From Priapulus caudatus (Eukaryota > Priapulida > Priapulimorpha > Priapulimorphida > Priapulidae): a stretch of 64,000 bases of DNA. This document shows, one piece after another, positions 11,872 to 46,000 of this stretch. The notes under the pieces were generated by a model that saw nothing but the letters and a program-made list of their open reading frames with translations, searched no databases and was not told the origin of the DNA. The translations under genes were made by a program, and so were the position numbers. Position 1 is the stretch's first letter. Each line of letters starts with the position of its first letter. Location: contig NW_014577129.1 in NCBI RefSeq assembly GCF_000485595.1, forward strand, positions 417,646-481,645. Reading direction: 5' to 3'.

Positions 11872-11917
11872 CAGGAGTAGATAATAGGGAATCCCTATTC
11901 CCTATTATCTACTCCTG
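11872..11917. mobile_element. CAGGAGT micro-palindrome, 46 bp
   Basis: CAGGAGTAGATAATAGGG on one arm and its complement CCCTATTATCTACTCCTG on the other, flanked on both sides by ATATATAT. The interior arm AGATAATAGGG is shared with the copy at 23140-23177. The AT-dinucleotide flanks make the direct-repeat length ambiguous here. Confidence 0.7.
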
Positions 11918-12012
11918 ATATATATCAATTCTAATAAAGAATATCTATGCTATAGCAAGACGATGCCATATGACAATCTAAATCGTTGATTTATTTATAG
12001 ATACTACCCCTT

Positions 12013-12036
12013 GATACTACCCCAAGGGGTAGTATC
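12013..12036. repeat. Perfect 24-bp palindrome
   Basis: GATACTACCCC and its complement GGGGTAGTATC, separated by AA. A further GATACTACCCC-like half lies just upstream. No function is inferred. Confidence 0.6.
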
Positions 12037-12139
12037 TATGATTTATTGTTCCGCGCCGAACGAGTTCGTGGGGATACTATGGGTTTGGCATCGTCGCGCC
12101 GCCGCCGCCGACGCCGCCCGCAGAAGGCAGAAAGGTGCG

Positions 12140-12236
12140 ACTACTAGGCACTTTAATTGAATTAAATTTTTTTTTTTTAGGGTTAGGGTTTTTTTTTAAG
12201 TGCCCCTAGTAGTCATATTAAGTGCCTAGTAGTCAT
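12140..12236. repeat. Short inverted repeat around a T-rich/TTAGGG core
   Basis: ACTACTAGGCACTT at the left is answered by AAGTGCC(CC)TAGTAGT and AAGTGCCTAGTAGT at the right. A poly-T tract with TTAGGGTTAGGG lies in the middle. Probably a small foldback MITE. Confidence 0.5.
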
Positions 12237-41144: not shown

Positions 41145-42795
41145 CACTGGCGTAGCTAAGGGGGGCACAAGGGGCCATGGGCCCCCTTCTGTTGATTGGC
41201 AAACAAAACAACAACAAAAATTTTCCTGGCCTCTCACGCGTCTTCACAGGACTGGCCACAATTCCTGTTACTTCTTGCATCTGCTGAACGAACTTCTCTA
41301 AAATGAGCATTGTCAAGTTTCTAAACTTCTTCTACAATGACCAGCCACGATTCTCTGCTCTCATTCTCCTTTTCGTTGAACAGGAGTTAGTGAATGACAT
41401 TAATGTCAACGAAATCCTCAAAATCGACGAGAAGACTTGACTTTGGATTTTGAGATTTCTGCAGCAGACAAAAACATGACTAAAAGAAAGGAGATAATTC
41501 TTCTTTGCTCAGCGTTGTGTTGTTGGCAAGTGGCTTTGATTGAATTTTATGGTTCTGAACTCTTATTGACGAGAAGAAAAGAAATGGAATGCTTTGTTGA
41601 ATAACTTTGCATATATTCGAACTTATAGACGGCCATGTTGGCAGAAACTCGCGGTTTTTATTTCAAATCCGATTTCAACACTATTTTAAGTAACTGTTCT
41701 CTATCAGGGGAGGCAAAAACAATTCTTTTCATGGTAAATTTCCTTTTTATTTAATAGGAGCGAGCTTTTGGCCCAGCTACCTTTGTTTTTATTTGAAAAT
41801 CAAATTTCAATATGGTTTTTAGTTCTTCATCAGAGGAAAGCCAAAACATTTTTTATAACGAACAAAATGTTAAATGTGATTTCTTTAACGCTATTGTATT
41901 CTAAACGATGTAAATCTTTTGTAATTTAAATAAATTGCATGTTTATTCAGTGCAGTTTCCAACACATCTACTGCTTTTGTCCGTAGATCTTTATTTCGAT
42001 TTCATTCAATATGCCTCTACTTTTTCAAAAAATAATTTAACTTTTAACTTTTTATATGTGGAACTTGAAACAGTTTATGACGGATAAAATGCCAACATTG
42101 CATGGTACTACTAACAACACAAATCAAACTAATTCCACATATTCCGTCGAGTGCTTGAATGAGGACATAGGCGTAGCTAAGGGGGGGGGGGCCACAAGGA
42201 GGCCATGACCCCCTCTTGATCGGAGAGTACAAAAATTAAGAGAGAAGCGCCTGAAGGGATTGGTCTATACCACTATTACTACACCTAATAATGAAATGAA
42301 ATGCCGCAAAAATGCCATTTTGATGCAGATATTTCAAAAATTACCCTACTGTGGAGAGGAAATTAACACCCTCCCCGTTGAGAAATTGCTTCATCGCTGT
42401 CTTGGTCGCTTAACTCTTTTCTTCCCTCCCTGAAAAACACTGGCTTCGTACACCATTTTCACTGGTCTAGCTAAGGGTCCACCCAACTGGTCGTGTGTAA
42501 CCTCAGAGCCTTCCGGCGCCACAGCAGCGCGGCCATCGTCCCACGTTTGATCGCGATCGGAGTGGAAAAAATAAAAAGCGAGGGGAGGGGGGTTATAAGG
42601 ATTAGCATATGCCACTTCTCATATAGTTACCCCTAATACTGAATTTTAGTGTGCAGAAAATGCCATTTTCATGCACGAATTTCAAAAATCTCCCTACCGT
42701 GGAGGGGGGGATACCCCTCCCACACCCTACTCCTCGGTCGCCTTCGCTCCCTCGCCTTGGCCCCCCCTGTTTTCCAATTGCTGGCTACGCCACTG
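41145..42795 (+). mobile_element. hAT-type element, copy C (indel-rich)
   Basis: CACTGGCGTAGCTAAGGGGG at the left, GGCTACGCCACTG at the right; collinear with copy A over its whole length. The transposase fragment is frameshifted (for example ACGAACTTCTCTAAAATGAG lacks one base relative to copy A). Dense one-base indels suggest read error rather than only decay. Confidence 0.8.
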
Positions 42796-42960
42796 GGAGG
42801 GAGGGAGAGAGAGAGAGCGAGAGGAGAGAGAGAGAACGAGAAGAGAGAGAGAGAGAGAGAAGAGAGAGAGAGAGAGAGAGAGAGAACGAGAGAGCAGGAG
42901 AGACAGAGAGACGAATTGAGAGACTGGACGAGAGTAGAGAGAGAGAGAGAGATCAGTGAT
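42791..42960. repeat. (GA)n microsatellite
   Basis: GAGAGAG run between the hAT right end and the DCTN4 5' flank. Confidence 0.9.
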
Positions 42961-43041
42961 CAAAATACTATGGCACAGATATTATTTCGAATTATTGAAT
43001 TTCGTTTCCCACAGGTGGCGTTGTTGTGTTGACTTATCAAA

Positions 43042-46000
43042 ATGGCTACCTACATGAACATCGAGAGGGTGAAATACATGTGTTCTTGTGATAAATGGAC
43101 AGCTTTTAGTTTACTTTACTTTTGTAAACACTGCCTGAAATTACGGTGTAGTAAATGTGTCACCCATGAGGTAAGGTGTTGCATTCGTACCGTTTTAGGT
43201 CGTAACTTATTTGGGTTTCATGTCAGTGAACATGCACTTCCTAGGCTAGAGACGAGTAGAGAGTATAGTCTCATTTGTTTACTGTATACTACAGCCACTG
43301 CTACTTGTACTACTACTACTACTACTACTACTACTACTACTACTACTACTACTACTACTACTACTACTACTACTACTACTACTACTACTACTACTAGCTT
43401 ACTAAGTTTAGTATAGTACTAGTAGTTTCTAAAAGTAAGGCATCGAGTTAATTTTATGTTTTTTGCTCGCTTAATTTACAGGTTGACAACCATTATTGCC
43501 CCAATTGTTTAGAAAACATGCCATCAACAGAAGCAATGCTAAAGAAAAACAGGTGCCATTAGGCTGTATTTCTTAGACGAAGATTGTTGTGTAAATGTCG
43601 ATGTAATATAATCAGGAGTAAGATAATATAGATCTATATATTATCTTACTCCTGATATAATTAATATATTAGTTATTCTAGGATTGCCAGCAAATTTTTT
43701 ATATGTATCCTACATACAAATTTTTAAATAGCATCAATATTTCTTAGTCCCACATTCACTGCATGAACAGGAATATTTACAGCTTGGAAGTTTTTGGTGC
43801 CTAGGTGTTCAAGCTGCTTTGACTGCCCTTGCTGTCAGCATACGTTGTCCACGCGTGCTACGACACTACTCGTCGGAGCGACTAGCCCAACAAGTCCTGA
43901 TTCCTCTGCATCACAGCCAAGTGGTGCCGCCGAGGAAGCACCTCCTGCTACGCCGAAGAAAGTTTACTATCTGGCATGTGGGTTTTGTCGCTGGACATCG
44001 CGAGATGGAGGTCTACAGGATCAACCTGTTGGTGGGTAAAACAACAAGGAGCACAGTATTCATTTCAGTCTTATTTCCATGTATCATCTGATGATGCACA
44101 TCTCTGTCAGGCACCCGTAACTGGAATTGTTATTGCATGTCACTTTTACACATATATATGCATTCTGAAGTGAATCAACGAGCTAGTAAGTTCAAGATAT
44201 AACTTTAGAGACTGGGATGTATGCTATGTAGAAATAGTAATATATTGTTATGTATTGGACATACTTTTACCTATCCAGAAAACTAAAATTTTGTCGATTT
44301 GGTTTGTATGAAATCTATTTTGGTATTTCTCAATCATAATACATTCATATTGATAACAATTTAACATGCACCTATAAATGGTACAATGTATGTTTGTACT
44401 ATGTAACCGCTCTCTGTTATCATTGCAGATATGGTCATAAATTTTTTAATTTTGTATAGCTTCAGGTGGCTGGAACGAAGAAGAAAACCCGCATAATCAG
44501 CAGGTATGATGCAGGGTATTTTTAAAAGTTGTAAATAAGAAATAATGGTACATCTTTGGTGGTAATCAGGTAAATTATACTGGATCTAGAGTGACAGCCT
44601 GTGTGGGGTATCGGGTACAAATACCTCGGAAACTTGGTATTATTTATAATTAAAGACCCATGCACCAGCCTTAAAAAACACTGAGCTATACACTCATTAT
44701 TATTATATGTATAAATGATGGCCTGTTCATTTTGTTATAAAGATCATACACTGTTTATTGTTATATATGATGGTACACTATTTTCCCTATGTAGTTACGT
44801 GCATAGAAGAACTGCATATCATTAGGTGCTGGGTAAATTTTTGCTAAGCAATAATTTAAACTACGTTGTCCACCAGATCAGCAATTTGGTAGAATATTAC
44901 CAGCAGATGGCACTAGTAGAGCAGGTAGAGAGGGACCGGAAGCGTACACCATCCAGGAGGAGGGCCCTTCTGCAGCATGCGGTACGAGATTGGTTACTAG
45001 AATGAGTGAGAGCGACTTCTTGACTGTCGATGTGTGCCACTAGTTCCTAGGCTTTAGTTGTGTTTCATCCTAGTCTAAAATGAAGACTATTGTCTCAGTA
45101 CTGCACAATTCTTATGCATGTTAGTGTTGAGTTAGTTAAAGGACAATTGAAGTCAAATTTTATAACTTCTGTAACGTTTTTATACATAGAAATACATTCA
45201 ATAATGTATTCCATTTCAAATCCGGCGCCATCACGCTGGCAAATCAGTAGGAAACACATGAATATTAATCTAGGTCATGTGACATCACAGCCCCATGTTG
45301 AAACGCGCCATTATATAGCGTAACACGCTAGTATATGTTATGCTAGGTGAAAGTATTGTTACAGCATACAACAAACATGTAGCCTGTAAATGTACTTATA
45401 TTCATGTACATACATATTACCTGTGTGGATAATGCATTCACGGTATATGTACAGGACTTGCGTAGAGATGTTTGTACATGTACAGATACATGTGATTCTG
45501 ACCGAGCGTGATAAGCCCGGTGATCAGTGTAGGCCTACTCGTGTGACTCACCTGGTCTAGCGTCGAACTGGTCTACAATAACCCTGGTCTTCTCATTCTC
45601 ATGGCAGCATATACATTCAGGTGCCGTACTCATTAATTCACAAACACTACAAGAACACCAGTATTTGTCTACAGTCCTATCTGGTACCGAACCTTCCATT
45701 CCGCCATGTTGTGACTGTTTTGATTCTTGAGAAGTTTGTGCCGACTCTTCGCGTTGCTTTTTCAGACGATTCTCCTCAATTTCTTCTTGTGTATATTCAG
45801 GCTCAAACCTATATCCAACTGTTAAATCACTATAAATATCATCATCATCTGAGTAATCACTAGAATCATTGAAATTATCGCTTTCTGTCTCCATTTTATA
45901 CACCACACGCACTATGTTTACATAATGGCATGTTTCAACATGGGGCTGTGACATCACATGACCTAGATTAATATTCATGTGTTTCTTACTAATTGGGCGC

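What the first reader, a model, noticed from the sequence alone, without database searches (positions are those of the whole stretch)
11872..43654. Family of 38-54 bp micro-palindromes with CAGGAGT ends and 7-bp target duplications
Six copies: 11872-11917, 19646-19699, 20030-20082, 23140-23177, 29894-29932 and 43613-43654. Five begin CAGGAGT (29894 begins CAGGGAGT). Four end ACTCCTG; 23140 ends ACTTCTG and 29894 ends CCCCCG. All fold into a near-perfect hairpin. Four are flanked by exact 7-bp direct repeats, all different: AAGATAT, GCATTAT, ATACAAG, ATATAAT. The other two sit in (AT)n. Different target duplications show each copy moved into its site. The outer 7 bp are conserved, but the inner arms differ between copies while staying self-complementary, so arms appear to be rewritten symmetrically. 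This is far shorter than ordinary MITEs and could be a new class of hairpin insertion, perhaps a by-product of a larger transposase or of hairpin-end repair.
Basis: partly seen in the sequence, partly recalled or inferred. Interest (0 to 1): 0.88.

Follow-up and report, generated by a model that had tools for sequence, protein, structure and literature searches.

The report
Scars left by jumping P-type transposons
The tiny palindromes are best read not as a new kind of mobile element but as repaired scars left when transposons related to the fruit-fly P element jumped out, and this animal genome keeps about two thousand of them, a natural record of how it mends broken DNA.

Summary
All six palindromes and four 7-bp duplications are present, and a scan without the CAGGAGT motif adds a possible seventh. 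The window's own genome (385 Mb) has 2,084 exact CAGGAGT...ACTCCTG palindromes against 5 for the reversed pattern.

They are best explained as excision footprints of a P-superfamily (Galileo-like) transposon clade. Parent elements of 0.4-1.3 kb, plus one 7.1-kb copy with a decayed P-type transposase gene, carry long terminal inverted repeats: a tip (CAGGAGT..., mostly 16-21 nt), then a conserved motif, GGAGTRWGACA. The palindromes keep only the tips. Of 174 sides compared with parent tips none keeps more than 1 nt beyond it, although the parental repeats go on. Short palindromes holding the motif on both sides (up to 30 nt between) number 0 genome-wide. Between the tips lie blunt joins, 2-nt overlaps or filler, sometimes copied from tips or flanks. 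Laboratory Drosophila P-element excision gives the same anatomy (PMC2895639).

Arms differ because subfamilies have different tips. My own fixed-20-nt prediction failed for one family, so the cut appears to be placed by the motif. Other individuals, reads and relatives were not available, so filled, empty and healed alleles were not compared.

The parts
11872..11917 (+). Footprint, 46 bp: tip CAGGAGTAGATAATAGGGAA on both sides plus 6 nt filler (TCCCTA, also present in the right tip); lies in (AT)n
19646..19699 (+). Footprint, 54 bp: tip CAGGAGTTAATGAAGACAAA on both sides plus 14 nt CATCATCATCATCA; lies in (AT)n; an identical copy at G000:C24:107674 shares AGTGAATCA beyond the (AT)n on one side (probably duplicated together)
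20030..20082 (+). Footprint, 53 bp: tip CAGGAGTCTATCAATA on the left and 15 nt of it on the right, 22 nt filler; 7-bp TSD AAGATAT
23140..23177 (+). Footprint, 38 bp: tip CAGGAGTAGATAATAGGGAA on the left, 18 nt of it on the right (end mutated to ACTTCTG), no filler; 7-bp TSD GCATTAT
29894..29932 (+). Diverged footprint, 39 bp, resembling the TTAATAATGACAAA tip; 7-bp TSD ATACAAG
43613..43654 (+). Footprint, 42 bp: tips of the CAGGAGTAAGATAATATAG family; 7-bp TSD ATATAAT
11996..12040 (.). Possible footprint of another family, 45 bp, ends CATAGATA/TATAGATA, 10 nt central copy of ATACTACCCC; 7-bp TSD ATTTATT; parent not sought

Best explanation
Each palindrome is the repaired scar of a departed transposon of a P-superfamily clade. 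The element inserts at a target resembling ATNNNAT and duplicates 7 (sometimes 8) bp. On excision its transposase cuts one strand at the element's end and the other strand just outside the inner motif GGAGTRWGACA, mostly 16-21 nt inside. Each chromosome end then keeps one tip, expected to be a 3' overhang as for Drosophila P. Because the terminal repeats are inverted, the two tips are mirror images. End joining makes a blunt join, a 2-nt overlap, or a filler sometimes copied from the tips and flanks, giving TSD-tip-filler-reversed tip-TSD. The scar lacks the inner motif, so it should be immobile, and scars accumulate. Shown here: parents, duplications, the retention limit, variable centres, template copies in a minority of fillers, P-type transposase relatives and a decayed transposase gene inside one element. 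Inferred: strand polarity, immobility, the repair enzyme (Pol theta-like and NHEJ), and that excision happened in the germ line.
For: (1) Parents with the same ends and long TIRs. First family: of 11 wide pairs fetched, 5 have an exact 7-bp duplication (L041, L045, L046, L048, L049), 3 an 8-bp one readable from the printed flanks (L044, L047, L050), L042 lies in (AT)n, L040 has none, L043 is a cluster of palindromes. Others with 7 bp: L111, L112, L114, L115 of 6, L133 of 3, L151 of 1. (2) Retention limit: of 174 sides matching an observed parent tip for >=13 nt, 78 keep exactly the tip, 15 keep 1 nt more, none more, although parental TIRs run on nearly identically. (3) Motif on both sides with 0-30 nt between: 0 places against 2,084 palindromes. 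Of 95 convergent pairs among the first 100 places of three families, 75 are <=130 bp, 1 is 176 bp, 19 are >=390 bp. (4) 88 of 102 classified: 18 blunt, 12 with 2-nt overlap, 15, 17 and 26 with 1-3, 4-10 and >10 nt inserted; among the first 50 listed places 44 sequences are distinct. (5) Fillers of >=8 nt match their own tips and flanks better than shuffles (7.88 against 5.53; p<=0.05 in 13 of 34); L118 copies 22 nt running from the duplication into the tip. (6) P identity: L100 (7.1 kb, both TIRs) holds colinear matches to L104/L106 (best tblastn 7.5e-34), whose frames pass PF21787; 9 of the 16 places found by an L100 frame coincide with PF21787 matches. L035, another P group here, matches Drosophila P transposase 6p5a at 2.8e-23. 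(7) Drosophila P excision yields 8-bp TSD + 17-nt tip + join or insertion + tip + TSD (PMC2895639, passages).
Against: A prediction I wrote down first (the CTATCAATA parent should have a 20-nt tip ending TTGA) failed: its tip is 16 nt. I then moved from a fixed 20-nt cut to a motif-placed cut. 17 of 102 have no exact 7- or 8-bp duplication outside (AT)n. No parent with the exact TTAATAAAGACAAA or TTAATGAAGACAAA tip was seen; 26 of the 174 sides therefore match a parent only to 13 nt. 21 of 34 fillers showed no significant template, the window's two among them. A few simple forms recur at unrelated sites. The transposase gene in L100 is decayed; 20 of its 34 listed frames scanned singly gave no P or THAP domain at E<=1, and L104/L106 find no P transposase in the PDB by sequence. 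No site was seen both filled and healed.
Confidence: 0.93

Rival explanations
1. Micro-MITEs: the 24-60 bp palindromes are themselves mobile and copied by a transposase.
For: Target duplications differ between copies. Some sequences recur: in the 102 held, the 30-bp CTATCAATA form 12 times, the 40-bp TTAATAAAGACAAA form 6, the 40-bp AGATAATAGGGAA form 4, a 41-bp form 3, and a 35-bp, a further 40-bp and the 54-bp form twice each; fetched the 40/41- and 30-bp forms on purpose, so these counts are inflated.
Against: Recurring forms are, except the 35- and 54-bp ones, blunt, 1-nt or 2-nt-overlap joins that end joining would make repeatedly; the 54-bp pair (L147 and window 19646) shares its flank. 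44 of the first 50 listed are distinct. The palindromes lack the inner motif carried by the intact ends.
Confidence: 0.04
2. Internal deletion derivatives: extreme products of interrupted gap repair inside the element rather than excision scars.
For: P elements make internally deleted copies (PMC7776569, passages), and 0.4-1.3 kb elements here look like such copies.
Against: Deletion ends should scatter. No short form holding the motif on both sides with 0-30 nt between was found (0 places), the size distribution of sampled pairs is bimodal and the retained length stops at the tip.
Confidence: 0.02
3. Hairpin-end repair or symmetric rewriting of arms in place, or AT-rich repeat drift.
For: The copies are self-complementary, and several lie in (AT)n.
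Against: Arm sequences are the tips of existing elements. A second family with unequal tips gives non-palindromic insertions. Outside (AT)n 33 of 47 have exact 7-bp duplications.
Confidence: 0.01

Closest known systems
Drosophila P-element excision products (tables of PMC2895639; Pol theta study)
   Same: TSD + element tip + microhomology, blunt join or templated insertion + reversed tip + TSD; complex repeat-like insertions
   Different: There 8-bp TSD and one 17-nt tip from one engineered locus, with 2-nt microhomology common and blunt joins few; here natural sites, 7-bp TSD, tips mostly of 16-21 nt in many subfamilies, blunt joins 18 of 88 (a sample partly chosen by form)
Galileo (P superfamily, Drosophila; PMC4168063)
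   Same: 7-bp, occasionally 8-bp TSD; long foldback-like TIRs; short palindromic target consensus (GTATTAC there, ATNNNAT here); no functional copies found there, and none seen here
   Different: Different host; tips not compared; no footprint set in the passages I read
Pdre2/THAP9 elements of zebrafish (PMC10983969)
   Same: P-superfamily transposase, excision active
   Different: 8-bp TSD, 13-bp TIR; excision by zebrafish THAP9 in fly cells gave larger flanking deletions; no tip palindromes in the passages I read

Membership tests
P superfamily of DNA transposons | Transposase related to P transposase (RNase H fold with P-type domains) | tested here: met
   L100 (both TIRs) holds colinear pieces related to L104/L106; L104 and L106 pass the PF21787 cut-off. 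The clade's own gene is decayed. L035, of another P group in this genome, has PF12017, PF21787, PF21788, PF21789 and matches 6p5a
P superfamily of DNA transposons | 7- or 8-bp target site duplications | tested here: met
   Footprints: 72 exact 7 bp and 5 exact 8 bp of 102; parents:
P superfamily of DNA transposons | Terminal inverted repeats with long staggered excision cut (17 nt in Drosophila P) | tested here: inconclusive
   The retention limit at tips of 16-21 nt fits a long stagger; cut and polarity not assayed
P superfamily of DNA transposons | THAP DNA-binding domain | tested here: inconclusive
   None in the 20 of 34 listed frames of the decayed L100 that were scanned at E<=1; an intact gene of the clade was not available
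Galileo family | Sequence relationship to Galileo TIR or transposase | not tested
   Only structure and TSD compared
MITE (mobile non-autonomous element) | Copies share an internal sequence inherited through transposition | tested here: not met
   For the micro-palindromes: 44 distinct of the first 50; recurrence mainly in the simplest joins. The 0.4-1.3 kb parents do look like MITE-type elements

The most novel reading that the evidence does not exclude
A Galileo-like P clade in which the second-strand cut is placed by an inner motif rather than by a fixed distance from the end, so subfamilies with 16-, 19-, 20- and 21-nt tips each leave scars of exactly that tip; and whose host repairs excisions mostly by end joining, so scars outnumber elements several-fold and form a natural genome-wide archive of thousands of double-strand-break repair junctions.
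Probability: 0.6. Interest if true: 0.72.

Novelty: new variant of a known kind. Interest (0 to 1): 0.62.

Why it matters
Excision scars of P-type transposons are known from laboratory flies. A genome that has kept about two thousand, with their parents alongside, lets one read natural end-joining outcomes (blunt, microhomology, templated filler) from a known starting break. The motif-placed cut with tips of different length is a testable statement about how P-type transposases measure their ends. It also warns that tiny palindromes with target duplications should not be annotated as new mobile elements without looking for parents.

Tried and rejected
Rejected: new hairpin element, micro-MITE, internal deletion series, AT-repeat drift (see rivals). 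A fixed 20-nt cut, predicted, failed. P-transposase loci L005-L039 as far as held were scanned for TIRs with exact 7- or 8-bp duplications; no CAGGAGT-type pair appeared. Three widely spaced TIR pairs were fetched as candidate autonomous elements; only L100 had transposase pieces, L101 and L102 gave no match to the paralogs. A 641-base query round window palindromes 11872 and 11996 showed no second copy spanning either, but only 40 of 1,043 candidates were scored. A protein search with the 7tm_7 receptor ORF gave nothing; the viral-contig scan for one tip gave 0. The organism was not identified.

Literature: ten searches. In the listings I saw no genome-wide set of natural P-type footprints; a rice paper on DNA-transposon activity and excision (PMC4423477, listing only) is nearest in spirit. 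The library holds open-licence papers only, so this is weak evidence of absence. Read as passages: PMC7776569, PMC10983969, PMC2895639, PMC4168063; no paper was read whole.

Samples and dropped rows: one search typed all 50 places listed, out of 2,084. One search typed 44 of the 50 places listed, out of 171, and used rough tip patterns. One search used the first 100 listed places of three families. Searches fetched many 40/41- and 30-bp forms on purpose, so class shares in the set of 102 are not unbiased. Searches contained one miscut item (L080, a lone tip merged with a neighbouring palindrome); one search replaces it and its numbers are used here (one search failed). 14 of 102 were left unclassified because a tip of <13 nt was recognised. 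The two imperfect window copies (23140, 29894) are not in the 102.
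Full report
OBSERVATION. Four have exact, different 7-bp flanks and two lie in (AT)n. In 60 dinucleotide shuffles of the window no exact-end palindrome appears, against 4 observed. A motif-free scan for short inverted repeats with exact 7-bp flanks, filtered for arms with at least two G/C (4 of 100 raw hits kept), recovered three of the four and added a 45-bp palindrome with other ends at 11996-12040. 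The window looks like animal DNA: UNC-93, a 7tm_7 receptor, a polycystin channel exon and a hAT remnant.

GENOME SCALE. The window's assembly is held (385,217,808 bases, 2,952 contigs). CAGGAGTN{8,38}ACTCCTG occurs at 2,084 places, the reversed control pattern at 5. Of the 50 places listed there, 44 sequences are distinct, lengths run from 24 to 52, perfect arms never exceed 21 nt and the centres vary from 0 to 33 nt. Of 51 palindromes read with their flanks, 47 lie outside (AT)n: 33 have an exact 7-bp and 4 an exact 8-bp duplication, none any other length from 3 to 11; mispaired flanks match at 7 bp in 58 of 2,162. Two of the 33 (L085) are copies of one locus. The 33 duplications are close to ATNNNAT (first position A in 28, second T in 33, sixth A in 31, seventh T in 31). 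In the enlarged set of 102, 72 have 7 bp, 5 have 8 bp, 8 lie in (AT)n and 17 have neither.

PARENTS. The tip CAGGAGTAGATAATAGGG occurs 629 times forward and 594 reverse. Besides short palindromes, inverted pairs lie 398-1,405 bp apart. Of the 11 such pairs fetched ten are elements whose terminal repeats read CAGGAGTAGATAATAGGGA(A)GGAGTGTGACATCAATAAACAAGGGAAATTC..., nearly identical at both ends over most of the 70 bases printed; L043 is a cluster of palindromes. Five have an exact 7-bp duplication, three an 8-bp one readable from the printed flanks (L044, L047, L050), L042 lies in (AT)n and L040 has none. Parents were also found for CAGGAGTAAGATAATATAG (4 of 6 long pairs with 7-bp duplications), CAGGAGTTAATAATGACAAA (1 of 3) and CAGGAGTCTATCAATA (L151). 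The pattern CAGGAGTN{4,20}RGAGTRWGACA finds 244 forward and 254 reverse ends (control 0 and 2); the 100 listed places show mostly tips of 16, 19, 20 and 21 nt before the same inner motif, with a few tips of other lengths.

THE RETENTION LIMIT. Of 174 footprint sides that match an observed parent tip for at least 13 nt, 78 keep exactly the tip, 15 one base more, none more; the rest keep less, 26 of them because their subfamily's exact parent was not seen. Short forms with the motif on both sides and up to 30 nt between number 0 in the genome. In the first 100 places of three families, 95 convergent pairs fall into 75 of at most 130 bp, 1 of 176 bp and 19 of at least 390 bp; three of the long ones (L043, and pairs in L113 and L114) are clusters or nested events rather than simple elements. 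Blunt joins are twice the tip: 40 bp for 20-nt tips, 32 bp for the 16-nt GTATCAATA tip. I predicted in writing that the CTATCAATA parent would have a 20-nt tip ending TTGA; it has a 16-nt tip, and its common 30-bp scar is 16+16 minus a 2-nt overlap. The motif-placed cut is therefore a reading made after that failure; it fits the other tip lengths, but a dedicated test is still owed.

JUNCTIONS. Of 102 footprints, 88 could be classified: 18 blunt, 12 with a 2-nt overlap, 15 with 1-3, 17 with 4-10 and 26 with more than 10 inserted nt. The shares are not unbiased, because fetched blunt and 30-bp forms on purpose. Fillers of at least 8 nt (34) have a mean longest match of 7.88 nt to their own tips and 20-bp flanks against 5.53 for shuffles; 13 of 34 reach p<=0.05, 21 do not. 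The null shuffles single bases, so AT-rich fillers may be slightly favoured. L118 carries 22 nt running from the duplication into the tip. In the 102, 78 sequences are distinct; seven forms recur: three 40-bp blunt joins, a 41-bp form with one extra nt, the 30-bp overlap form, a 35-bp form seen twice, and the 54-bp form shared by the window's 19646 copy and L147, which also share AGTGAATCA beyond the (AT)n on one side.

THE TRANSPOSASE. The genome has 64 matches to PF21787, the P-type transposase RNase H domain. L100 is a 7.1-kb element with the clade's TIRs at both ends (tip CAGGAGTGTATAATAGGGA), in (AT)n, so its duplication cannot be read. One frame of it finds 16 places in the genome, 9 of which lie within PF21787 matches. 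Two of those relatives, L104 and L106, pass the PF21787 cut-off and match L100 in colinear pieces (7.5e-34 for the largest). The gene in L100 is decayed: none of the 20 frames scanned alone (of 34 listed) matched a P or THAP domain. L035, from another P group in this genome, has the P set of domains and matches the Drosophila P transposase structure 6p5a at 2.8e-23. L104 and L106 alone found no P transposase in the PDB.

COMPARISON. Drosophila P transposase cuts the second strand 17 bp inside the element (PMC7776569, passages), leaving 17-nt 3' overhangs on the chromosome (PMC2895639, passages). The recovered end-joining products have the form 8-bp duplication, tip, microhomology or insertion, reversed tip, duplication (PMC2895639, tables), which is the anatomy seen here. 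Galileo, also P superfamily, has 7-bp, sometimes 8-bp, duplications, long TIRs and a palindromic target (PMC4168063, passages). The thing works like P excision; by its transposase relatives and duplications it belongs to the P superfamily; Galileo membership was not tested.

A SECOND FAMILY. Short insertions CATAGAAATAN{15,45}TATTTCTATG occur at 171 places (control 0). The two read with flanks have 8-bp duplications. In 15 of 44 typed copies one side only has a GAGACA-type tip, and 10 have perfect arms of 15 nt or more. If these are scars too, symmetry follows from the parent's ends and not from any hairpin process. Their parents were not sought.

LIMITS. No reads, individuals or related species were available, so filled, empty and healed alleles were not compared. 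The cap on letters kept the sample at about 100 footprints. Exact-pattern counts are lower bounds on both sides, so the ratio of scars to elements (2,084 palindromes to 498 ends) is rough.

Noticed in passing
G000 genome-wide; L003:1104-1158, L032:2040-2094: Second family of short insertions CATAGAAATA...TATTTCTATG, 171 places, 8-bp duplications in the two seen with flanks, left and right tips often different; perhaps scars of another P-like element whose parent is not identified.
   Followed up: partly
L002:470-509 and L028:1048-1106: Short inverted-repeat insertions with CAAGAGC-type ends; the first has an exact 7-bp duplication GTAGTAT, the second none exact.
   Followed up: no
L035:2234-4717 (-): Uninterrupted 827-aa P-type transposase frame, match to Drosophila P transposase 6p5a at 2.8e-23; its own terminal repeats were not found.
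   Followed up: partly
L108:1273-2337: Open frame joining a P-transposase-like part with a piece matching Mononeg_mRNAcap, probably an endogenous virus-derived fragment.
   Followed up: no
window 58786-59076 and 39700-40100: Interstitial TTAGGG/CCCTAA-type telomere-like repeats.
   Followed up: no
window 2633-6353: 3.7-kb tandem array, period about 52-56 bp, with many indels between copies.
   Followed up: no
window 17006-17662 and 34436-34858: hAT C-terminal dimerisation remnant (PF05699, 1.3e-11) and a second piece with similar translated sequence but no Pfam match; the CAGGAGT at 17192 lies inside this frame and is not a palindrome.
   Followed up: no
L114:368, L113:75, L116:75: Copies of the AAGATAATATAG tip preceded by the same CTGTTGGCGG inside parent-like elements, apparently nested events; unexplained.
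   Followed up: no
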